DNA from: Dialister sp.
GTDB taxonomy: Bacteria > Bacillota > Negativicutes > Veillonellales > Dialisteraceae
Assembly: GCA_022722495.1 (NCBI GenBank)
Contig: JAIJLI010000003.1
Location: 1 to 40,817, forward strand
Reading direction: 5' to 3'
Length of the DNA stretch: 40,817 nt
The translations under genes were made by a program, and so were the position numbers. Shown piece by piece: positions 1 to 40,817 of the stretch (within the stretch, counting starts at the first letter, position 1; each line of letters opens with the position of its first letter). The notes below the pieces were generated by a model. The model saw only the letters and a program-made list of their open reading frames with translations, searched no databases and had not been told where the DNA came from.

Positions 1-99
1 AAACCGAATGTATTGGATACCGCAAGAACCTCGTTGCGCACGGATTTCATTTCGTCCCCGGTCAATCCGGTGAACTGCTGCGTCAGTCGTGTGGCTTCC
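1..99. repeat. Terminal direct repeat, copy 1 (circular assembly overlap)
   Basis: These 99 bases are identical to 40719-40817. The repeat lies inside one continuous reading frame (tape measure) that reads through the joined ends without a shift. This fits an overlap of a circular assembly better than a biological terminal repeat. The unique genome length is then 40,718 bp. The sequence alone does not tell whether the virion DNA is circularly permuted or cos-ended. Confidence 0.95.
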
Positions 100-5205: not shown

Positions 5206-5754
5206 TTATCTAGATTTACGTTTCATTTCCTCTGCCTGCAACTTCTGCAGGTTCCTCTCGTACACGCTTCTCTTGTTGTCCATCTCCATGCACTTGTAGA
5301 TGCGAAGCCATGGGGTCTTCAATACTTGGTCGTGGTCGCTGATGCCCATCCTTACCGCATACCAGTCCAGCATGCCGAACAGTCCGAACCGCAGGGTATC
5401 GATGCCTGCCTCCTTCTCCAGTCTCGTTGGCTTCGCTGTGTCTGTGCTCTCGAAAAGTTTATTGATGCGCTCGACCTCTGCTGTTACCCATCCGATGAGC
5501 ATAACGACATCAACCGCCCTAGCCTGCTCCACTTCCTTGTGGCTCAGACCGAGGACGGTTGTCACTATCTGATACAGACTTTCTTCGCTGTCCGGCAGCT
5601 GGGAAAGGTCTATCAGTTGCCCGATGGAAAGTCCGTTGAGATTGTCGGGCACTTGTTTTCCTCCGACAAACGCTGGTCGTGGCTGCTTGCCGATTTTATA
5701 GCTGGTGTGTCTTGCCACTGCCAGCCAATACTTGAATGTCGTGTTATTATCCAT
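5206..5754 (-). CDS. Hypothetical protein between terminase and tail genes (182 aa)
   Basis: Mostly helical, soluble, with a basic C-terminus (QAEEMKRKSR). It starts 20 bases after the terminase large subunit. The contents (LSIGQLIDLSQLPDSEES near residues 40-58, then long helices) fit a structural or chaperone-type protein. Tail assembly chaperones often occupy this place but no frameshift partner is visible. Family not recognised. Confidence 0.5.
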   Translation of the reverse strand: MDNNTTFKYWLAVARHTSYKIGKQPRPAFVGGKQVPDNLNGLSIGQLIDLSQLPDSEESLYQIVTTVLGLSHKEVEQARAVDVVMLIGWVTAEVERINKLFESTDTAKPTRLEKEAGIDTLRFGLFGMLDWYAVRMGISDHDQVLKTPWLRIYKCMEMDNKRSVYERNLQKLQAEEMKRKSR

Positions 5755-12457: not shown

Positions 12458-13471
12458 CTAGAATGGCAGGTTCTCGATGTCGTAGTTTGTGCAGGCGATG
12501 TTCTCGTGTCCCTCGAATGGAATACAGTAGGCGAAATCTGCTGGTTTTCCGCTGTGGATACACAGGACTTTATATCTCCACGCATATTCATCTCCACGAT
12601 CACGGACGAAGAACGCTGGCAGCCACTTATATTTTTTGTTGCACCGTACCAGCACCTTATCGAAAGGCTTAAAGGCTGGCTGCTCCTTCGCTTCCTTCTC
12701 TTTCTTCTCCCAGATGGCGCAATGCTTATTGAATAACTCGACTTCGTTCTCTGTCGCTTCTCTCAGTACCTCATGCAAACTGATATCCAGGTCAAAGGCT
12801 TGGTCGGTCACGAACTTCTCGTTCTCGATTTCGTACTGGTTGCCGAATGTCAGCGTGTCCTCGCTCTCGTTCTTGCCGATGAGCTTGCCAATTACCATTA
12901 CCTTGCCATCCTCATCTTCCTCATCGAAAACATAGAGTTTGCCGATTTCAAACGTAAGTTTCTCCGGCTTTTCAATCTCCAGAGTTTCCCGGTTCAGCTT
13001 TCCACCAAAATGCTTCTCTAAAGTGTTGATGTAGGCATGGGCTTCATCATCGCTAGCTTTCCTAAACGTAAAAGTTATCATTTCAGATACTTCTTTGTTA
13101 TAATCTTCGAAACATTCTTTCCACAGATAATGCTTGCTTTTAAATCTTGTGTAGCGATTATCTTTAAACCCTTCAAAGATAACATGTATGTCGCAATCTC
13201 TATGAACAAGCACGTCTCCCTTCTTGAAGAACTTGCTCCAGTCTCTCATTTCGTTGGAAGGGAAAAGCAGGACTTCGCCATCTTCAAGATACTTGCCTTC
13301 TTTGTTGAAGGTGAATTCACCGTTCCTGTTTTCAGTCCCAATCGCATCCCCTGCTTCCTTGTTGGTTGCAAGCCAGGAAAGGTCTACCCGTCCGCACATT
13401 GGCGTGTATAACTCAATGCCATTTGGCATACCTTTCAAAATCTCGTAAATATCAATATCTTTATTTTCCAT
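12458..13471 (-). CDS. Hypothetical early protein (337 aa)
   Basis: Acidic, soluble. The phrase FKPFDKVLVRCNKKYKWLPAFFVRD (about 268-292) followed by CIPFEGHENIACTN near the end is a module I associate with many Bacteroidales phage and mobile-element proteins of unknown role. The N-terminal half has a similar strand pattern around KKGDVLVHRDCDIHVIFEGF (about 83-102), which may be a diverged duplicate of that module. It may bind or sense something rather than catalyse; no active-site motif is seen. Its start is 14 bases after the 102-aa gene. Confidence 0.65.
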   Translation of the reverse strand: MENKDIDIYEILKGMPNGIELYTPMCGRVDLSWLATNKEAGDAIGTENRNGEFTFNKEGKYLEDGEVLLFPSNEMRDWSKFFKKGDVLVHRDCDIHVIFEGFKDNRYTRFKSKHYLWKECFEDYNKEVSEMITFTFRKASDDEAHAYINTLEKHFGGKLNRETLEIEKPEKLTFEIGKLYVFDEEDEDGKVMVIGKLIGKNESEDTLTFGNQYEIENEKFVTDQAFDLDISLHEVLREATENEVELFNKHCAIWEKKEKEAKEQPAFKPFDKVLVRCNKKYKWLPAFFVRDRGDEYAWRYKVLCIHSGKPADFAYCIPFEGHENIACTNYDIENLPF

Positions 13472-13485
13472 GTTCTTATTGTTTT

Positions 13486-13794
13486 TTATTGTTTGTTGTT
13501 TTTGTTCTTGTTGTGATTTTCAACTACCCTTATCATTTCATCGGTTACGGTCTCGATGAAGTCAAGGCAGGAAACCTGCGCCTTGGTGTAGGCATCTGCA
13601 ACCTTCTTTGTCGGAAGCATTCTCAATGCCACGGCAGTAGCTTCTTGGTGCGTAAGCTGTAGTTCGAGGATGGATTGCAGGAAATCCAGGCTCACGGTCT
13701 CTTCTCCTGCCAGTTCTGCAAGTCTCTTAGCCTTTTTCATTATCTCTACAGACCTGCGTTTCATTTTGTGTTTGAATTCTTCGTTTACTTCCAT
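13486..13794 (-). CDS. Small helical protein (102 aa)
   Basis: All-alpha protein: basic N-terminus (HKMKRRSVEIMKKAKRLAELAG), amphipathic middle and a Lys/Asn-rich tail (ENHNKNKNNKQ). Family not recognised. The start codon at 13792-13794 is preceded within 3 bases by AAACATTCAG, one of four leader copies complementary to the predicted RNA at 23917-23984, so its translation may be controlled by that RNA. Confidence 0.6.
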   Translation of the reverse strand: MEVNEEFKHKMKRRSVEIMKKAKRLAELAGEETVSLDFLQSILELQLTHQEATAVALRMLPTKKVADAYTKAQVSCLDFIETVTDEMIRVVENHNKNKNNKQ

Positions 13795-13797
13795 GTT

Positions 13798-13807
13798 CTG
13801 AATGTTT
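13798..13807 (-). promoter_or_regulatory. AAACATTCAG leader motif, 3 bases before a start codon
   Basis: The minus strand reads AAACATTCAG directly before the 102-aa gene. Ten bases are complementary to the 5' end of the predicted small RNA at 23917-23984. Other leader copies are at 17568, 19716 and 25827. Confidence 0.5.
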
Positions 13808-14159: not shown

Positions 14160-14642
14160 TTATTTAAAAAGTTCCTGCTGTGGGTGGATGATGTCTGCAC
14201 GTTTCTTCTTGGCTGCCCAGAGAAGGAGGTTGGTGTTCTTTGTTCCAGCACTCTTCTCCAGGTCTCTGATAATGCAGGTTAAGGCGTCTTGAACCGCTTC
14301 GCTCTCGTTACCGTAGAAGATGCTGAGGGTGTCGTATCGGCTCGGGTAGCCAGCCGGACTGTCATATCCATGCTTTCCCTTCTGTATGCTGTAGCCCCAT
14401 ATCCAGCCGAACTGGGTATTGGCGGTCATTACCTTCCATCCCCAGTTGTCTACTCCCTCTACGGAATACTCGATAACGTGCGGATTGATACAAATATCCT
14501 TGATGTTGTATTTGAAGCCTTCATGCTCTGCGACCGGCTTCTTGATGTCGTAGCCGTTATCGGTCAGCCATTTAAACCAATCGTCCGAGGTCTTGAAGAC
14601 GAGCCCTGCGGCTCTGCATTCGTGGAAAAATAATTCATTCAT
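14160..14642 (-). CDS. Hypothetical protein with C-terminal clamp-binding-like motif (160 aa)
   Basis: Mixed alpha/beta, Trp-rich (WFKWLTDNGYDI, WGWKVMTANTQFGWIWGY). The C-terminus HPQQELFK resembles the QxxLF peptide that binds the bacterial beta sliding clamp. That would fit an early gene acting at the replication fork, but this is inference from six residues. It lies 2 bases after the acidic 100-aa gene. Confidence 0.6.
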   Translation of the reverse strand: MNELFFHECRAAGLVFKTSDDWFKWLTDNGYDIKKPVAEHEGFKYNIKDICINPHVIEYSVEGVDNWGWKVMTANTQFGWIWGYSIQKGKHGYDSPAGYPSRYDTLSIFYGNESEAVQDALTCIIRDLEKSAGTKNTNLLLWAAKKKRADIIHPQQELFK

Positions 14643-16306: not shown

Positions 16307-17248
16307 TTACTTAATGAGCAATCTTCGTGCTCCCTGCACCTGCTTGATGTACTTGGCGCACGCTTTAGGATGGTCTGCCTGAAAAGCCTTGGCATCGAAC
16401 TTCTCGCTTGCCTTCGGTGCTTTCCACGTTGCCAGCATCTTTCCGTTTCCGTCCACGATGCTCTCTGCGTCCCCGAAGAACAGCTTCAAGTTGTCCTCAA
16501 TCTCATCCTGCTCGGTCTCCAGTTTCTTGTTCTGAACCTTGAGTTCCTTGAGCCTAGCAATCTGTTCAAGTATCTCCTTCGTTGCAGTCACTTCCTTGCC
16601 AGCTACATGTAGAGGAGACTTTAGGAGAACGTCTTGTGCGCTGTAGGCTGGCGGCTCTTGGTTGCCCACGATGTAGTCAAGCCAGAACTTGGTTATCTCG
16701 TCCCTCATCCATCCGAAGAATTCGGGGTCGAAGTCGATGTCACGGTAGCCGAACTCCCTGCCTGCTGTCAGCCAGGCAAGTGCTCCATCCTTGTATTCGC
16801 CAACTCCGAGGTTCATCTGTAGCTGGCAGAACCAATGCTTCGGGAGGTCGTCTGCATCTATCTGCATCTGCGTGGTCTTGCACTCTAGGATGCTCTTGCT
16901 CGCTTCGTTGTGCGTTGCCCCGGTTCTCCAGAAGGTGCGGTCAGGAGATACACGCAGATACGGAGTATCGGTGTTCGTGATGGTGTAGTCGTCAGTCGAT
17001 GCCTTGATGATGTGGCAGTGGCTCTCTCGTTTAAAGAACTGCGCCACGGCATCCTCAAGCAGATGTCCTGCGACCATCGCAAAGTTCTCAACCTTTGGTG
17101 GGTCGATACCCTTCTTGCGTCTCCACAACTGGTATGGTGTTTCCCATGGGTTCAGTCCCAGTACTGTACCTGCCTCTGATGCGCCTATTCCCTTTGAACG
17201 GTTCTGCAACCACTCCTCTCTGCTTTTATATTTAATTATCTGCTTCAT
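16307..17248 (-). CDS. YqaJ/lambda-type exonuclease
   Basis: 313 residues with the YqaJ-like recombinase nuclease core: IGASEAGTVLGLNPWETPYQLW (about 21-42), GHLLEDAVAQFF (about 61-72), acidic SPDR (about 100-103) and catalytic ECK in SILECKTTQM (about 119-128). These are the metal-binding residues of PD-(D/E)XK exonucleases. It resects double-stranded ends to give 3' tails for a partner annealing protein, most likely the 286-aa product upstream. A coiled-coil tail (about 220-255) follows the nuclease. Its start overlaps the 109-aa gene by 17 bases. Confidence 0.85.
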   Translation of the reverse strand: MKQIIKYKSREEWLQNRSKGIGASEAGTVLGLNPWETPYQLWRRKKGIDPPKVENFAMVAGHLLEDAVAQFFKRESHCHIIKASTDDYTITNTDTPYLRVSPDRTFWRTGATHNEASKSILECKTTQMQIDADDLPKHWFCQLQMNLGVGEYKDGALAWLTAGREFGYRDIDFDPEFFGWMRDEITKFWLDYIVGNQEPPAYSAQDVLLKSPLHVAGKEVTATKEILEQIARLKELKVQNKKLETEQDEIEDNLKLFFGDAESIVDGNGKMLATWKAPKASEKFDAKAFQADHPKACAKYIKQVQGARRLLIK

Positions 17249-17561
17249 TGTCTTTTATTTTTATGTTTGCGGTATAATACATTTTCGCTGCTCCAATGAT
17301 AAGCTGACGAACGAATTCATCCCTCTTCATTGAATGCACAAGTCCACTTGCGAGGATATCGGCTTTTCCGGAATAGGCAATATGGAAATCGAAGCTTTTG
17401 CCACCTTCTTTGCTTACATCCCCATTATCTTCTGCTGCAATCTGTAGAAAATTTCTTTCTTTCTCGTTTTCCTCGACCCATGTCTTGTATGCCTTGGCGG
17501 TTCTGTCAAAGTACTTGTCGATGGTGCTCTTGTGTTTCTGTTTGTTTTCTTTTTCTGCCAT
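17232..17561 (-). CDS. Hypothetical protein between recombination genes (109 aa)
   Basis: Charged, Lys-rich N-terminus, helical middle (KYFDRTAKAYKTWVEENEKERNFLQIAAED), and a C-terminal region with hydrophobic strands (KSFDFHIAYSGKADILASGLVHSMKRDEFVRQLIIGAAKMYY). Its place between a putative annealing protein and an exonuclease suggests a recombination accessory role. The leader is unusual: a stable hairpin (17586-17643) followed by TTAAACATTCAGT seven bases before the start codon. Confidence 0.6.
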   Translation of the reverse strand: MAEKENKQKHKSTIDKYFDRTAKAYKTWVEENEKERNFLQIAAEDNGDVSKEGGKSFDFHIAYSGKADILASGLVHSMKRDEFVRQLIIGAAKMYYTANIKIKDNEADN

Positions 17562-17567
17562 ATTATT

Positions 17568-17580
17568 ACTGAATGTTTAA
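17568..17580 (-). promoter_or_regulatory. TTAAACATTCAGT leader motif (best complement to the predicted RNA)
   Basis: Thirteen bases, complementary without mismatch to the predicted 5' end of the RNA at 23917-23984. It lies 7 bases before the start codon at 17559-17561, over the ribosome-binding region. Confidence 0.5.
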
Positions 17581-17585
17581 AAGTT

Positions 17586-19132: not shown

Positions 19133-19422
19133 TCGTTACCTCCTCTCTTATTGAATATGTAACTTTGGAAGGTCTCACGGCACGACTTCAATACCTCGTT
19201 GTCCGTTCCGTCCAGTGGTATGAGCGGAATGTTATCCAGTGCCACGCAAAGGTTGCCTTCAAACTCTCTGTACTGGATTCTTCGCTCTGCCTCCAAATAG
19301 CACTTGTTGTTCAGTTCGCATTGCTTTCTGGTCTTGCGGTTCGCCTTCCAGTTAGTGATAAGCCAGCAGATGTCTGTGTACTTCACGATCATCCTGCGCA
19401 TATTGATTGACAACTTGCTCAT
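19129..19422 (-). CDS. Hypothetical early protein (97 aa)
   Basis: Basic, helical N-terminal half (MSKLSINMRRMIVKYTDICWLITNWKANRKTRKQCE) and a short strand-turn region (GNLCVALDNIPLIPLDG). It overlaps both neighbours by 4 bases, which supports it as a member of the leftward operon. Function not recognised. Confidence 0.55.
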   Translation of the reverse strand: MSKLSINMRRMIVKYTDICWLITNWKANRKTRKQCELNNKCYLEAERRIQYREFEGNLCVALDNIPLIPLDGTDNEVLKSCRETFQSYIFNKRGGNE

Positions 19423-19616
19423 AGGGCAATCCTCCAGACTTTTTTTATCTCGCTGCCCTCGAAAACCTTGCGGTTGTCGATTCTGCGGAACTTGACCTTA
19501 ATCTTACCAGCCTGCAACCATCTGCGCAGGGTGTTGCGATGGATGCCCAGTACCTTGCAGGTTTCTGTCATGGTGTATCTGCCTGCATCCGCTACCTTTG
19601 GTTCTTCGTTCGTCAT
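19419..19616 (-). CDS. Excisionase/MerR-type HTH protein (65 aa)
   Basis: Small winged-helix DNA-binding protein: YTMTETCKVLGIHRNTLRRW (about 14-33), then LQAGKIKVKFRRIDNRKVFEGSEI. This is the excisionase-family HTH_17 pattern, with recognition helix HRNTLRRW and a wing. A phage excisionase bends attP and directs the integrase to excision. Its presence in the early leftward operon, opposite the rightward integrase, fits induction. It could also be a transcription regulator. Confidence 0.75.
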   Translation of the reverse strand: MTNEEPKVADAGRYTMTETCKVLGIHRNTLRRWLQAGKIKVKFRRIDNRKVFEGSEIKKVWRIAL

Positions 19617-19617
19617 A

Positions 19618-19710
19618 TTAAGCCCTCCAAAAGATTAAAGTTACTAACATGGTGGCAATTACCAGGGATAATACTTCATCACTTGTGATAATCTCGATAA
19701 ACTTCTTCAT
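19618..19710 (-). CDS. 30-residue single-span membrane peptide
   Basis: ATG at 19708-19710 gives MKKFIEIITSDEVLSLVIAT..., with one hydrophobic segment (about 13-28) and the C-terminus FWRA. The stop is one base before the excisionase start, so coupling is likely. TTAAACATTCAG lies 5 bases before its ATG. Short but well placed. Role unknown. Confidence 0.5.
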   Translation of the reverse strand: MKKFIEIITSDEVLSLVIATMLVTLIFWRA

Positions 19711-19715
19711 ACGCT

Positions 19716-19727
19716 CTGAATGTTTAA
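19716..19727 (-). promoter_or_regulatory. TTAAACATTCAG leader motif, 5 bases before a start codon
   Basis: Twelve bases complementary to the predicted RNA at 23917-23984, in the leader of the 30-residue membrane peptide. Confidence 0.5.
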
Positions 19728-19742
19728 ATTGGTTCTACTTGA

Positions 19743-22630: not shown

Positions 22631-23797
22631 ATGGCAACACTTAGACTATATTTAGATACAAGGGTAAAAAGGCAGGATGGTACGTTCTCCATCCGGCTTG
22701 CCGTCAACCATCACGGTGGGACTGCCTTCATATCCCTCAATCAATACTGCAAGAAAGATGAATGGGATAAAAGGTCTTGCAAGGTGCGCAAGCGTCCCGA
22801 TCGTGATGCTATCAACGATTTTCTTCTTGACCGTCTGAATTTCTATAATAGAATGATGATGAAGGCGCAATGCAGGGAAACATACCGGGGCGATATTACG
22901 GCTAGGGAACTCCGGGACTTAATCATGCTTGAAGCTGAGCCTGCAAGGGAAAAAGTAGCCCTGCTTCGAGATGGCTTCATTGCCTACGAGGGGAGAAACA
23001 TAAAAGAGAACACGATAAACAGATATAAATATACTTGGGCAAAGATTGAAGCTTTCCTAGGGAAGGAAAAAGCGGCTCTGCTTACATACGATGAGATTAA
23101 TCGGTCTTGGCTTGAAGATTTCGATGCGTTCATGGCAAAGGAAGGCTTGTCTAGGAACACCAGAGCCAGCAGGATGCTCTGTGTCGCTGCTGTCTTCAAC
23201 TTGGCGATAGATAATGAGCAAACGAAAAACTACCCATTTCGCAGGTACAGTCTCCGGCTTGAAACAACGAAAAAGCGAGATTTGTCCGTTGAGGAAATCC
23301 GCTCTATCTTCGAAGCTGGTGGTGATGAACTGGTCGACATGTTCCTGCTGATGTTCCTGCTGATTGGTATCAATGTGAGTGACTTGTTTGCCTTGACAAA
23401 TGAGAATATCGTCCGTGGAAGACTGGAATACGACCGAGCGAAGACTGGCAGGCATTACTCCATCCTTCTTCATCCAGAAGCTCTCCGAATCATCGAGAAG
23501 TACAAAGGGGAAAAGAAGCTGCTTCGTTTCTCGGAGCATTTCAGGAACGTTGATGTTGCAACGGTCATGATTAATAAGAAACTCGCAAAGGTTCGCCCAG
23601 GGCTTACTACGTACTACGCTCGCCATACGTGGGCTTCTATTGCCTTCAACATTGGTATACAAAAGGACGTGGTGTCGCTTGCGCTGGGTCACTCGTTCGG
23701 TGTCCGGGTAACTGACACCTACATCAATGCAGACTTGTCTCGAGTGGACGATGCCAACCGCAGGGTTATTGATTACGTGCTGTACGACAAAAAATAG
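22631..23797 (+). CDS. int: Tyrosine recombinase / phage integrase
   Basis: 388 residues: arm-binding-like N-terminus (MATLRLYLDTRVKRQDGTFSI), SAM-like core-binding domain (about 105-205) and catalytic domain. The nucleophile is Tyr364 (TDTYIN); other active-site residues are Lys271 (AKTGRH), Arg331 (YYARHTW) and His354 (LGHS). The usual first catalytic Arg is Asn248 (GINVSDLF), and the first His of HxxR is Tyr328. Loss of Arg I is known in the CTnDOT-type integrases of Bacteroidetes. It integrates and excises the phage; the gene is complete. Confidence 0.92.
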   Translation: MATLRLYLDTRVKRQDGTFSIRLAVNHHGGTAFISLNQYCKKDEWDKRSCKVRKRPDRDAINDFLLDRLNFYNRMMMKAQCRETYRGDITARELRDLIMLEAEPAREKVALLRDGFIAYEGRNIKENTINRYKYTWAKIEAFLGKEKAALLTYDEINRSWLEDFDAFMAKEGLSRNTRASRMLCVAAVFNLAIDNEQTKNYPFRRYSLRLETTKKRDLSVEEIRSIFEAGGDELVDMFLLMFLLIGINVSDLFALTNENIVRGRLEYDRAKTGRHYSILLHPEALRIIEKYKGEKKLLRFSEHFRNVDVATVMINKKLAKVRPGLTTYYARHTWASIAFNIGIQKDVVSLALGHSFGVRVTDTYINADLSRVDDANRRVIDYVLYDKK

Positions 23798-23916: not shown

Positions 23917-23984
23917 AAAAATACCCCAGCGGTGAAAAAGTCGAGCCGCTGGGGTAATAAGTGGAGACCACTTAAACATTCAGT
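23917..23984 (-). ncRNA. Predicted small RNA with own promoter and terminator
   Basis: The minus strand from about 23984 begins ACTGAATGTTTAAGTGG. A first hairpin (TAAGTGG/CCACTTA, 23958-23974) leaves about 10 bases single-stranded at the 5' end. A perfect 11-bp terminator stem TACCCCAGCGG/CCGCTGGGGTA (23922-23932 with 23946-23956) is then followed by TTTTT. The free 5' end is complementary to the AAACATTCAG motif in four phage leaders. The length is about 68 nt. It points toward the integrase gene and ends about 120 bases past its stop. Confidence 0.6.
23922..23956 (-). terminator. Rho-independent terminator with 11-bp stem
   Basis: Perfect stem with a 13-base loop. On the minus strand it is followed by TTTTTATG (23921-23914), a proper U-run. 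On the plus strand it is followed by AATAAG, so it is weaker for the integrase transcript. Confidence 0.8.
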
Positions 23985-23988
23985 GATG

Positions 23989-24020
23989 CAAAGGTACGCT
24001 TTTCCTTTGAAACCACCAAA
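23989..24020 (-). promoter_or_regulatory. Canonical Bacteroidetes promoter driving the small RNA
   Basis: TTTG at 24017-24020, a 20-base spacer, then TACCTTTG at 23989-23996 on the minus strand. There is no minus-strand gene between it and the terminator 35 bases further on, so its product should be a short RNA. Confidence 0.75.
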
Positions 24021-25540: not shown

Positions 25541-25789
25541 TTACTTTGCGTATAATGTTATAATCAATCCTCTTCTGAGTGCGCAGCGGCAAGCGTCCAG
25601 ACCTGCCTTCAATGCTCGCTTGATGAACTTGTTGAAAAGTTCTGCACCTATGAGCTTCAAGATTCCGCTTACTCCTACGAGTGTGTTTATCTTCTTGCCA
25701 TCCTCTGTGCGTCCGAAGACCTTGATGCGAAAGTTTGAGTTGATAAACTTTGTAGTAAACTCTAAAACGTTTGAATTTGACTTTTTCAT
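25541..25789 (-). CDS. First gene of the leftward accessory group (82 aa)
   Basis: N-terminal strand region (NVLEFTTKFINSNFRIKVFGRTEDGKK), then a helical basic part (GAELFNKFIKRALKAGLDACRCALRRG). It has a canonical promoter (25864-25895), an operator-like palindrome on the start point, and a TAAACATTCAGT motif 38 bases before its ATG. This makes it the most heavily signposted small gene in the window. Function unknown. Confidence 0.6.
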   Translation of the reverse strand: MKKSNSNVLEFTTKFINSNFRIKVFGRTEDGKKINTLVGVSGILKLIGAELFNKFIKRALKAGLDACRCALRRGLIITLYAK

Positions 25790-25826
25790 TTTTAATTGGC
25801 TTGACCGTGTTGCCTAGGGCTTAGTT

Positions 25827-25838
25827 ACTGAATGTTTA
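25827..25838 (-). promoter_or_regulatory. TAAACATTCAGT leader motif
   Basis: Twelve bases complementary to the predicted RNA at 23917-23984, in the ~70-base leader of the 82-aa gene. Unlike the other three copies it is 38 bases from the start codon. Confidence 0.45.
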
Positions 25839-25840
25839 TT

Positions 25841-38395: not shown

Positions 38396-40817
38396 TTAGA
38401 GCCTGCCGATATTCTCTATCGTCTGCACTCTCCGCTGGGTGCGGTTTATCTCCTCAACGCTCACTACTGGCTGTGGAGCCATCTGATACCCTCTAGCTAC
38501 AGCTGCCGCCAGCATATCCATGCCGATGTTGCTGCCTCCGTTGTTTGCTACGATAGGAACGCCACCGCCTAGCTGGTTGAATGCGGATAATATCGGGCTG
38601 AACATCGAAGTCGCCTTGGCGGTCATTACGCTCTCGCCATTGGAAAGCCTTGCCGGGATGCTGTCGCTGGTTCCAGTACCCGAGCCTTGGACGTAGCCAC
38701 CAGTGGAGAAGCCCTTGACGAGTGCTTTTGCTCCTGCAAAGGCTGCCTTGATAAGTACCATTAATGCTGCTGCACTCGCAACACCTCCCCACGACTTGCT
38801 TGCAATCTCCTTCGCCAGGATCTGTGCATAATAAGCGTTAACTGCTATTTCGATAGCGTCAAGTATTGATGTCAGCATCGATTTAAGGAATGAGTGCAGC
38901 GATTTATCCTCGCTCTCGAAAAACTCGGACAGACCGTCTCCCATGGTCTGTATCATGTCGCTCATCATTTTCAGTTGCTCTTCCGTCAAAGCTGCCTTTT
39001 TCTTGTTTGCTTCCTCTTGCTCCTTGACTTCTGCATCGCTCAAATCCTTCTGCAGCTGCTCCTGCACGGCTGCATAGTCCTTGTAGGCGTCCATCTTGCT
39101 CTGAAGGAAAGCCTTGTATCTCTCCAGCTTGGCTGTATCGTCTTCCTCTCCAGTGCCACCGCTCATGATGTCCGCATCCTTGCGTGCCTTCTCTGCGTCC
39201 TCAAACTCCTTGTTGAGTTCGTCCACAATCTCCTTTGCTTGGTTCTTCAAGTCCGCTTTCGCTTTTATCATGATGTCGAGAAGTTTTACCTGCATTTCCT
39301 GCGCCTTGTCCGCTCCGATTTGCCCTGCCGCCACGTATGCGTCAATGCTCCTCGCTACCATGTTCTTCTCCAGCTGTTCGAGGTCGTTGTTGTAGTCTCG
39401 CTCGTTGTCGTACATGCCTGCAAGGTATCGCTTCTTTGCGTCCATTACCTGCTCGTTGTACTGGAACTGGATAAGTGCAATCTGTGCCTGCAATTCCTTT
39501 TCCTGCTTCTTCCTGCGCTCTGCCTCTGCCTTGGCTTCCGCTTTCTCCTTGGCTATCTGCGCCTTTGTCTTGGCAGTGCTGCCCTTGGCTGCTGGTGTCG
39601 TTCCCTGGTTTCCGTTCGTTGGCTCGCTGCTGGTCGCTCCACCGTCTAGGTTCGCAAGCTTCAGATGGTTCAGTCTTCCGTGAACGGTGTTCTCGAATCC
39701 GTCAGCGAATGTGTTTCCTATCTCGATACCAGCATTCTTGATGTCGTGCCATGCTTCCTTGATTGTGCCGGATATATCGAACATCTCCTTGAATCCCTTC
39801 TGTGCCTTGGATAGGTCGAAAGTCACGATACCTTCGAGTATATCAAGCATGCCCTTGGCTGCAAAGCCCATCCTCTTGAATGCGTCTATTGCTAGATTGC
39901 ATACGAGCTTTATTGCATTCCACATCAAGCGGAAACTTGTGCCGAGTGTATTGATTACCCCTCGCAACAGAAGGCTGTCATTGTACCAGTCGATGAAGTA
40001 GTTGATTGCCTGCACAACTCCCTTGATAACTGCTGTAAGTGATTTCTTTGCAATCGTTGACAACTGAGCCTTCATTGTCTCGAAGCCACCCCCAGTGTAA
40101 TCAAACAGAGAAGCCATTGCGTCCTGCAATTCCTTGGTTGCGTTCAATTCGTCCTCTTGCGCCTTTGCAATATCCCCGGACTTTGCCTTCACTTTATCCA
40201 TGTTCAACTCAACGTCACCGAGCATCTCGATATACGCCAGTCCGGCATCCTCTCCCGGACCACCGAAGATGTTGGCAATTGCGCTGCCTACAGCGGCACT
40301 TGATTGTGGGAGTTCCTTCAACTTATTAGCCACCTCTTGCATAACCTGGAATGTGGTCTTGCTTCCGTTCTGCAGTTCTGTCTGTACTTGCTTGGATGAT
40401 ATACCTATTCCGTCAAGTGCAGCTGCCGTAGCGGTTGTCATTTCTCGCAGTCGTAGATTTCCTTCCTTGATGGTATCAACGCCCTTGTCGCTGAAGATAC
40501 CCTCCTTGGTCGCTTGCGTTGATATTGCCACCATTTCTTCTGCATTCAGTCCTGCTTCCTTGAAGTATCTCGGGTATTCTTTAATTGTGTCGAGGAACTC
40601 ACCGTTTGCGTTTGCACCGCTCACCAGTCCGTCTTGCATAATCTTCAAACTCTCAGAAACGGAAATGCCGAAAGCCTTGCTCATCGTATTAGCAGACTGC
40701 ATCGTCTCCGTGAATTCCAAACCGAATGTATTGGATACCGCAAGAACCTCGTTGCGCACGGATTTCATTTCGTCCCCGGTCAATCCGGTGAACTGCTGCG
40801 TCAGTCGTGTGGCTTCC
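38396..40817 (-). CDS. Tail tape measure protein, C-terminal part (continues at 803-1)
   Basis: The C-terminal ~810 of 1041 residues. It shows long helical stretches with Lys/Glu/Ala-rich coiled coil (KAQIAKEKAEAKAEAERRKK), two hydrophobic segments (IEIAVNAYYAQILAKEI and ASAAALMVLIKAAFAGAKAL near the end) and the typical tape-measure tail FSTGGYVQGSGTGTSDSIPA, then RLSNGESVM. The N-terminal part is at 1-803. Together they make a protein of normal tape-measure size, suggesting a tail of about 150 nm if 1.5 angstrom per residue holds. Confidence 0.92.
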   Translation of the reverse strand, partial: EATRLTQQFTGLTGDEMKSVRNEVLAVSNTFGLEFTETMQSANTMSKAFGISVSESLKIMQDGLVSGANANGEFLDTIKEYPRYFKEAGLNAEEMVAISTQATKEGIFSDKGVDTIKEGNLRLREMTTATAAALDGIGISSKQVQTELQNGSKTTFQVMQEVANKLKELPQSSAAVGSAIANIFGGPGEDAGLAYIEMLGDVELNMDKVKAKSGDIAKAQEDELNATKELQDAMASLFDYTGGGFETMKAQLSTIAKKSLTAVIKGVVQAINYFIDWYNDSLLLRGVINTLGTSFRLMWNAIKLVCNLAIDAFKRMGFAAKGMLDILEGIVTFDLSKAQKGFKEMFDISGTIKEAWHDIKNAGIEIGNTFADGFENTVHGRLNHLKLANLDGGATSSEPTNGNQGTTPAAKGSTAKTKAQIAKEKAEAKAEAERRKKQEKELQAQIALIQFQYNEQVMDAKKRYLAGMYDNERDYNNDLEQLEKNMVARSIDAYVAAGQIGADKAQEMQVKLLDIMIKAKADLKNQAKEIVDELNKEFEDAEKARKDADIMSGGTGEEDDTAKLERYKAFLQSKMDAYKDYAAVQEQLQKDLSDAEVKEQEEANKKKAALTEEQLKMMSDMIQTMGDGLSEFFESEDKSLHSFLKSMLTSILDAIEIAVNAYYAQILAKEIASKSWGGVASAAALMVLIKAAFAGAKALVKGFSTGGYVQGSGTGTSDSIPARLSNGESVMTAKATSMFSPILSAFNQLGGGVPIVANNGGSNIGMDMLAAAVARGYQMAPQPVVSVEEINRTQRRVQTIENIGRL
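40719..40817. repeat. Terminal direct repeat, copy 2
   Basis: Identical to bases 1-99; see that entry. Counting it twice would overstate the genome by 99 bases. Confidence 0.95.

What the first reader, a model, noticed from the sequence alone, without database searches (positions are those of the whole stretch)
23917..24020. Predicted small RNA complementary to the leaders of four phage genes
A canonical promoter (TTTG-20-TACCTTTG) fires leftward into a stretch with no minus-strand gene that ends 35 bases on in a perfect 11-bp terminator with U-run. The ~68-nt product would begin ACUGAAUGUUUAA. The exact complement, 10 to 13 bases long, occurs in the leaders at 17568, 19716, 25827 and 13798. 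Three of these end 3, 5 or 7 bases before the start codon, over the ribosome-binding region. I found no other copies of the motif. A trans-acting RNA that shuts off several early and accessory genes of the same phage would be new to me. Alternative: the motif is a general leader element, since on the plus strand the same bases sit two bases before an ATG (23986).
Basis: partly seen in the sequence, partly recalled or inferred. Interest (0 to 1): 0.85.

Follow-up and report, generated by a model that had tools for sequence, protein, structure and literature searches.

The report
Phage small RNA targets phage genes
A virus of gut-type bacteria carries a tiny RNA gene whose tip is complementary to sites just in front of several of its own genes, and in related viruses the tip and the sites have changed together, which points to a virus-built RNA switch with a different specificity in different viruses.

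Summary
The window is a circular temperate phage genome. A promoter, a predicted 68-nt RNA with a single-stranded 5' end, a hairpin and a terminator lie convergent to the integrase gene. AAACATTCAG occurs five times (0.23 expected): once as the complement of the RNA's 5' end, four times on the sense strand of gene leaders.

In near relatives motif and RNA 5' end are both kept. In more distant phages an RNA of the same build and position has a different 5' end, and leaders of orthologous genes (an 82-aa gene, the RecE-type exonuclease, the small gene before an excisionase-like gene) carry the matching complement. I count nine seed types (the ninth rests on one leader). Permutation p is 1.4e-4, 2e-5 and 1e-4 for the three gene families; picks by position alone return the same RNAs.

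Best reading: a phage-encoded trans-acting sRNA that pairs over translation starts and represses early and recombination genes, probably favouring lysogeny. Base pairing is strongly supported; transcription, repression and the lysogeny role are inferred. Phage antisense RNAs that I could check (c4, sar, OOP, aQ) act on one phage gene each. New variant of a known kind.

The parts
23989..24020 (-). Bacteroidota-type promoter, TTTG (24020-24017), 20-nt spacer, TACCTTTG (23996-23989)
   Evidence: promoter family recalled, start site inferred
23917..23984 (-). predicted 68-nt small RNA
   Evidence: fold -28.4 kcal/mol, z -6.6 against 100 mononucleotide shuffles; near-identical copies in G002, G003, G005, G006, G007, relatives in G008
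23972..23984 (-). 5' seed ACUGAAUGUUUAA; nt 1-10 unpaired in the fold (mean unpaired probability 0.97)
23958..23974 (-). first hairpin UAAGUGG-UCU-CCACUUA
   Evidence: in the second G008 copy both arms differ and a hairpin is still predicted
23917..23956 (-). intrinsic terminator: 11-bp stem and U-run
19716..19729 (-). target site ATTTAAACATTCAG in the leader of the 30-aa gene that precedes the excisionase-like gene
19618..19710 (-). 30-aa ORF ending 4 nt before the excisionase-like gene (19419-19616); possible translational coupling
   Evidence: HTH_17 domain in the 65-aa protein; 'excisionase-like' is my label
17568..17581 (-). target site TTTAAACATTCAGT in the leader of the 109-aa gene between the RecT-position and RecE-type genes
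17232..17561 (-). 109-aa target gene, no family in Pfam or PHROGs
25827..25838 (-). target site TAAACATTCAGT near the 5' end of the 82-aa gene's mRNA
25541..25789 (-). 82-aa target gene, phrog_32997 (unknown function), first gene of the operon that runs towards the small RNA
13798..13807 (-). target site AAACATTCAG in the leader of the 102-aa gene
13486..13794 (-). 102-aa target gene; in five near relatives (G002-G006) the same kind of leader precedes the 'ME.KD.DIYEIL' gene (window 12458-13471) instead
22631..23797 (+). tyrosine integrase, convergent to the small RNA, 199 nt from its promoter
16307..17248 (-). RecE-type (YqaJ) exonuclease; its leader carries the motif in G002, G004, G005, G006 and one G008 copy but has lost it here

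Best explanation
A phage-encoded, trans-acting small RNA made next to the integrase gene. Its unstructured 5' end pairs, over 10 to 18 nucleotides, with the sequence just upstream of the start codons of several genes of the same phage (the small gene before an excisionase-like gene, the RecE-type exonuclease or the gene before it, an 82-aa early gene, in some phages a helicase or the RecT-position gene) and blocks ribosome binding. The likely purpose is to keep excision and recombination genes silent in the lysogen, or to tune them early in infection. In each phage lineage seed and leaders evolve together. Shown by sequence: RNA gene structure, conserved position, matching leaders, joint change of seed and leaders. 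Inferred: that the RNA is transcribed, that it represses, that it serves lysogeny.
For: Motif 5 times against 0.23 expected. In five near relatives (RecT-position protein 94-99% identical) the leader copies of AAACATTCAG number 5, 3, 5, 5 and 6, sense to the next gene; G003's 82-aa leader has A-to-G in the motif, which keeps a G-U pair. Pattern scan of the RNA 5' end in IMG/VR: 7 hits, 5 of them in these same phages or isolates. New seeds with matching leaders: G010 17, 14 and 12 nt; L041/L128 15, 14, 13 nt, and 15 nt with one G-U; G009 12 and 14 nt, each with one G-U; L046, L157, L159, L180; L151; L163/L292 an uninterrupted duplex with score 46. Matrix of 14 RNAs and 63 leaders: score of 24 or more in 21 of 63 cognate and 7 of 713 non-cognate pairs; 82-aa gene cognate best in 11 of 12 leaders. 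Permutations, one RNA per type: 82-aa gene 7/50000, RecE 1/50000, pre-excisionase gene 5/50000. Blind picks by promoter plus terminator: 11 of 15 candidates are these RNAs and 8 of 15 rank their own RecE leader in the top 3.4%; picks by position beside the integrase: 10 of 10. Synteny: integrase convergent in 14 of 14, 82-aa gene upstream in 11 of 14.
Against: No transcript has been seen. The window's own RecE leader and that of G003 lack the motif; cognate is best in only 8 of 15 RecE, 3 of 15 RecT and 1 of 15 xis leaders and in 4 of 9 RecE and 6 of 9 pre-excisionase types. L128's RecE leader scores higher with another type's RNA (38.5 against 34). Several RNAs (L128, G009, L157, L180, L151) were noticed partly through their leader match, so the matrix and permutation values are optimistic. 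CAACAAC, half of many seeds' targets, is common in these leaders; with that half fixed and the rest shuffled, G413 is not significant (45/200), G414 5/200, G415 1/200. L189 (type 9) rests on one leader (23.0). In several types the fold hides part of the seed. For the 82-aa gene of type 1 the site is 38 nt from the ATG.
Confidence: 0.8

Rival explanations
1. The motif is a DNA operator for a phage regulator, placed at promoters and in leaders; the RNA is incidental.
For: The motif lies at the presumed transcription start of the small RNA and just after the promoter of the 82-aa gene.
Against: Most copies are inside operons 1-14 nt before start codons, and the 28 leader copies counted in the window and five near relatives are all sense to the gene while the RNA copy is antisense. 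G-U pairs are kept (G003, G009). Seeds and leaders change together while promoter, hairpins and terminator stay in place.
Confidence: 0.08
2. The motif is a general translation-initiation or leader element of the host or phage; the RNA's complement is chance.
For: AT-rich and CAACAAC-type leaders without Shine-Dalgarno are common in these phages.
Against: Each motif differs between phages of the same kind; the L041 motif is found 4 times in a 2.7-Mb genome; AAACATTCAG-N2-8-ATG is at about chance in 151 host-family genomes; the complement at the RNA 5' end recurs in nine seed types.
Confidence: 0.04
3. Pairing is real but the RNA activates its targets, or the leaders act as sponges that titrate the RNA away from another (host) target.
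For: Direction cannot be read from sequence; the site 38 nt upstream in the type-1 82-aa gene is not over the start region.
Against: Most sites end 1-14 nt before the ATG, where pairing would block initiation; repression by such pairing is documented for FopS in Bacteroides thetaiotaomicron (PMC11697453, passages).
Confidence: 0.12

Closest known systems
c4 RNA of phages P1/P7 (and sar of P22), antisense RNAs against the antirepressor gene ant
   Same: Phage-encoded, act on phage mRNA at the ribosome-binding region; c4 specificity underlies P1/P7 heteroimmunity (PMC12197685, passages).
   Different: The passages name one target (ant). Here an autonomous promoter-terminator RNA matches several separate genes, and many seed types exist among related phages.
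FopS/GibS sRNAs of Bacteroides thetaiotaomicron
   Same: Bacteroidota sRNAs, canonical promoter (FopS), 5' seed, pairing over translation initiation regions of several mRNAs, translation repressed (PMC11697453, passages).
   Different: Chromosomal, targets are polysaccharide-utilisation genes; the passages mention only a few seed SNPs among paralogs. 'prophage' is not found in that text.
RteR of the Bacteroides conjugative transposon CTnDOT
   Same: Small RNA of a Bacteroides mobile element said to act on the element's own transfer genes (recalled; only a search listing seen).
   Different: Recalled as acting on one operon by promoting termination; no comparison of sequence was made.
OOP and aQ RNAs of lambda
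   Same: Phage RNAs that affect the lysis-lysogeny programme (PMC12197685, passages).
   Different: Cis-encoded, one gene each (cII; Q).

Membership tests
trans-acting base-pairing sRNA | own promoter and intrinsic terminator, no ORF needed | tested here: met
   structure present in 15 folded RNAs; transcription itself not tested
trans-acting base-pairing sRNA | imperfectly linked targets encoded elsewhere, with conserved or co-varying complementarity | tested here: met
trans-acting base-pairing sRNA | measured change of target expression | not testable with these tools
   needs experiments
c4-type phage antisense RNA | target is an antirepressor gene (ant) | tested here: not met
   window targets have no antirepressor family: 30-, 82-, 102-, 109-aa proteins have no Pfam hit, only phrog_32997 for one; a weak sub-cutoff ANT hit (19.9 bits, cut-off 25.3) is to the neighbouring excisionase-like protein
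c4-type phage antisense RNA | pairing near the ribosome-binding site | tested here: met
   exception: type-1 82-aa gene, 38 nt
c4-type phage antisense RNA | different specificities between related phages giving heteroimmunity | tested here: inconclusive
   different specificities found; immunity not testable here
FopS/GibS | sequence relationship to the FopS family | not tested
   no FopS sequence was compared
any Rfam family | match above the gathering score | tested here: not met
   0 matches for the window; best sub-threshold matches over the RNA are Spot_42 18.7 of 80 bits and NsiR1 17.3 of 39 bits

The most novel reading that the evidence does not exclude
RNA-typed lysogenic immunity: related Bacteroidota temperate phages are divided into specificity types by the seed of one integrase-linked sRNA and the matching leaders of several early genes, so that a lysogen's sRNA silences excision and recombination genes of its own prophage and of incoming phages of the same type but not of other types, an RNA counterpart of repressor-operator immunity groups.
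Probability: 0.35. Interest if true: 0.9.

Novelty: new variant of a known kind. Interest (0 to 1): 0.8.

Why it matters
Gene control in temperate phages of gut Bacteroidota is poorly known. A multi-gene regulon of a phage run by one sRNA, with seed and targets that demonstrably change together in related phages, gives a ready natural experiment in RNA-RNA coevolution, predicts specificity types from sequence, and can be tested with simple reporters. It also marks small unknown early genes (82-aa phrog_32997, the 30-aa pre-excisionase gene) as control points of the phage programme.

Tried and rejected
Rejected: a real gene on the plus strand at 23986 (ORF length varies 75-203 aa among relatives; no ATG in L096). 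Rejected: host-wide leader element. Rejected: known Rfam RNA. Led nowhere: exact 17-mer of the RNA in viral contigs, 0 hits; DNA similarity in the phage collection, one 7% match whose locus L090 lacks the 9-mer; de novo finder on the ~50% RecT relatives L006-L011 and L019-L046: convincing pairs in L041 and L046, other low-p hits mostly inside coding or low-complexity DNA; the finder's p counts also flagged such false hits in type-1 phages and G004, and for G009 it flagged another place, not the RNA. Prophage loci L126, L127, L129, L130, L132 and L133 with 82-aa homologs: no RNA found. In one search, 37 of 47 loci with an integrase-like ORF gave no pick; four of these 37 (G009, L178, L128, L180) do carry an RNA that the rule missed. 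Nine phage records with 82-aa homologs and no integrase-like ORF (L213-L221): no such RNA except a candidate in P2559S. Rows dropped: the matrix uses 14 RNAs chosen by me; G005, G007 and the second G008 RNA were left out; L228, L246, L278, L265 and L292 were found later and are not in it. Two counts in my notebook are wrong and are corrected here: 82-aa gene 11 of 12 (not 12/13), position picks 10 (not 11).

Full report
What is there. The window's first and last 99 bases are identical, so it is a circular or circularly permuted genome. It has an integrase (PHROG and Pfam hits), a RecE-type YqaJ exonuclease, a protein in the RecT position (phrog_3657; 'RecT-position' is my label) and an HTH_17 protein that I call excisionase-like. 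On the minus strand, 199 nt from the integrase stop and convergent to it, lies a promoter TTTG-20-TACCTTTG followed by a 68-nt stretch that folds into an unpaired 5' end, a 7-bp hairpin and an 11-bp terminator (-28.4 kcal/mol, z -6.6 against mononucleotide shuffles). No Rfam family matches.

The motif in the window. AAACATTCAG occurs five times, 0.23 expected: at the RNA 5' end as complement, and sense in the leaders of ORFs 19710 (30 aa), 17561 (109 aa), 13794 (102 aa) and 25789 (82 aa), 5, 7, 3 and 38 nt before the ATG. Duplex energies -20.1, -18.8, -12.8 and -14.6; shuffled seeds do as well in 0, 0, 5 and 5 of 300. Leaders of the window's recE, recT and xis do not stand out (69, 18, 132 of 300).

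Near relatives. Eleven viral contigs encode a relative of the RecT-position protein; five are 94-99% identical (L001-L005 = G002-G006). AAACATTCAG counts by strand are 1/5, 3/1, 1/5, 5/1, 1/6 and, in an 8.5-kb second contig of the same isolate as G004, 1/0; the reversed control pattern is 0 in 6 of 6 records. The gene-leader copies (5, 3, 5, 5, 6) precede the orthologous 30-aa, 109-aa-like, RecE, DIYEIL and 82-aa genes, plus a new 91-aa gene in G006 and a tandem copy in G004. In G002, G003, G005 and G006 the single opposite-strand copy is the RNA. In G004 the opposite-strand copy is not an RNA; its isolate's RNA is on the other contig (G007). A pattern of promoter plus seed hits 7 viral contigs, 5 of them these phages or isolates. 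In G008, an 84-kb record with two copies of the RNA, one copy has quite different hairpin arms that still pair, with the same seed.

Seed and leaders change together. The 82-aa gene led to G009 (90% identical protein) and G010 (79%). G009 has no AAACATTCAG. Its 82-aa leader reads TGATTTGGTAAT and its RNA, in the same place, begins AUUACCAAAUUA. G010's leader AATAATTAATCAAATTC is a 17-nt perfect complement of its RNA; its pre-excisionase 32-aa gene (14 nt) and RecE (12 nt) match too. L041, a Prevotellaceae MAG with a 48% RecT-position relative, has TTAATCTTCAACAAC before RecE, a close form before the RecT-position gene (14 nt), a 71-aa gene (13 nt) and an 89-aa gene (15 nt, one G-U), against an RNA beginning GUUGUUGAAGAUUAA. 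RecE-anchored loci (80 kept of 99) added L157, L159, L180, L151 and L189; L046 came from the genome scan. L163/L292, one record, has a 20-letter pairing run of score 46 before an 84-aa gene.

Statistics. Pairing score: uninterrupted run, 3 per G-C, 2 per A-U, 0.5 per G-U. For 14 RNAs and 63 leaders of six gene families, 21 of 63 cognate and 7 of 713 non-cognate scores reach 24. By family the cognate RNA is best in 11 of 12 (82-aa), 8 of 15 (RecE, one of them weak at 14.5), 3 of 15 (RecT position), 1 of 15 (xis), 2 of 3 (helicase), 2 of 3 (p138). With one RNA per type, permutations give 7/50000, 1/50000 and 5/50000 for the 82-aa, RecE and pre-excisionase leaders; the cognate is row maximum in 7 of 7, 4 of 9 and 6 of 9. 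Because some RNAs were noticed through their leaders, two blind tests matter more. Promoter plus terminator alone gave 15 candidates in 12 of 114 loci; 11 are these RNAs, and 8 of the 15 rank their own RecE leader in the top 3.4% of 89 leaders, although same-type leaders of other phages were in the comparison. Promoter plus terminator within 900 nt of the integrase gave 10 picks among 17 loci with an integrase homolog, 10 of 10 these RNAs; a wider integrase search gave 47 loci and 10 picks, again only these RNAs, with 4 known RNAs missed.

Architecture. In 14 of 14 the integrase is convergent; the 82-aa gene lies upstream in 11 of 14, the 55-aa gene in 10 of 14. All 15 folded RNAs show at least one hairpin before or at a terminator stem (L151 shows the terminator only); z -3.4 to -6.6; mean unpaired probability of nt 1-10 is 0.51 to 0.98, so in several types the hairpin holds part of the seed and the first nucleotides are the free part.

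Not a host element. In the 2.7-Mb genome with L041, its TAATCTTCAACA motif occurs 4 times: RNA, two leaders, one place on another contig not followed up (reversed control 1). In 151 genomes of that family AAACATTCAG-N2-8-ATG is present in 93; rows are mostly 0-3 per strand, about what 13 fixed bases and 7 gap lengths would give (about 0.6 per genome by my estimate).

Mechanism. Sites mostly end 1-14 nt before the ATG, where pairing would block initiation. In Bacteroides thetaiotaomicron FopS represses translation in just this way (PMC11697453, passages). Targets are early or recombination functions and the gene coupled to an excisionase-like gene, and the RNA sits beside the integrase; nine phage records that have an 82-aa homolog but no integrase-like ORF lack such an RNA, except for one candidate. 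I therefore infer a brake on excision and recombination in lysogens. An untested thought: read-through integrase mRNA would carry the RNA's complement and could titrate it.

Known relatives and print. c4 (P1/P7) and sar target ant, OOP cII, aQ the Q gene (PMC12197685, passages). RteR is recalled; only a listing was seen. Searches for phage or prophage sRNAs in Bacteroides, Segatella or with self-targeting listed nothing that I recognise as this system; I saw titles and abstract starts only, and preprints and subscription papers are largely not held.

Noticed in passing
L219 (Croceibacter phage P2559S) 30533-30620 +; leaders at 14334, 28261, 34177: Phages without integrase that carry 82-aa homologs share a leader motif GAGAGCGA; P2559S has a promoter-like site and terminator whose transcript contains CGCTCTCGG, complementary to it. 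In PDS1, C1_85S2P, BKO1-3, AS73P1 and TCUEAP2 the motif occurs 7, 6, 3, 5 and 4 times, sometimes just after an ATG.
   Followed up: partly
window 25789-25840; L091-L097, L101: Behind the target site the 82-aa leader has a conserved tail AGCCCTAGGCA.CACGGT.AAGCCA, kept in L095 although the target site has changed; its role is unknown.
   Followed up: no
window 23917-23984; L094, L095, L098: Four RNAs of three seed types share TCGACTTT in or next to the terminator loop; possibly a protein site or part of an attachment site.
   Followed up: no
G008 (84-kb viral record), RNAs at 5372 and 46958: One record holds two related phage segments with same-seed RNAs whose hairpin arms differ.
   Followed up: partly
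window 13486-13807; G004 16755 and 16794: The target leader has changed gene: before the 102-aa gene in the window, before the DIYEIL gene in relatives, and in tandem copy in G004.
   Followed up: partly
L213 (Bacteroides phage BKO1-3) 13674-13979: The 82-aa homolog is annotated as ribosomal large subunit pseudouridine synthase B, whereas in PDS1 and C1_85S2P that name is on the neighbouring gene; probably a shifted annotation.
   Followed up: no
window 1-99 and 40719-40817: Identical 99-base ends: circular or circularly permuted genome, last 99 bases redundant.
   Followed up: yes
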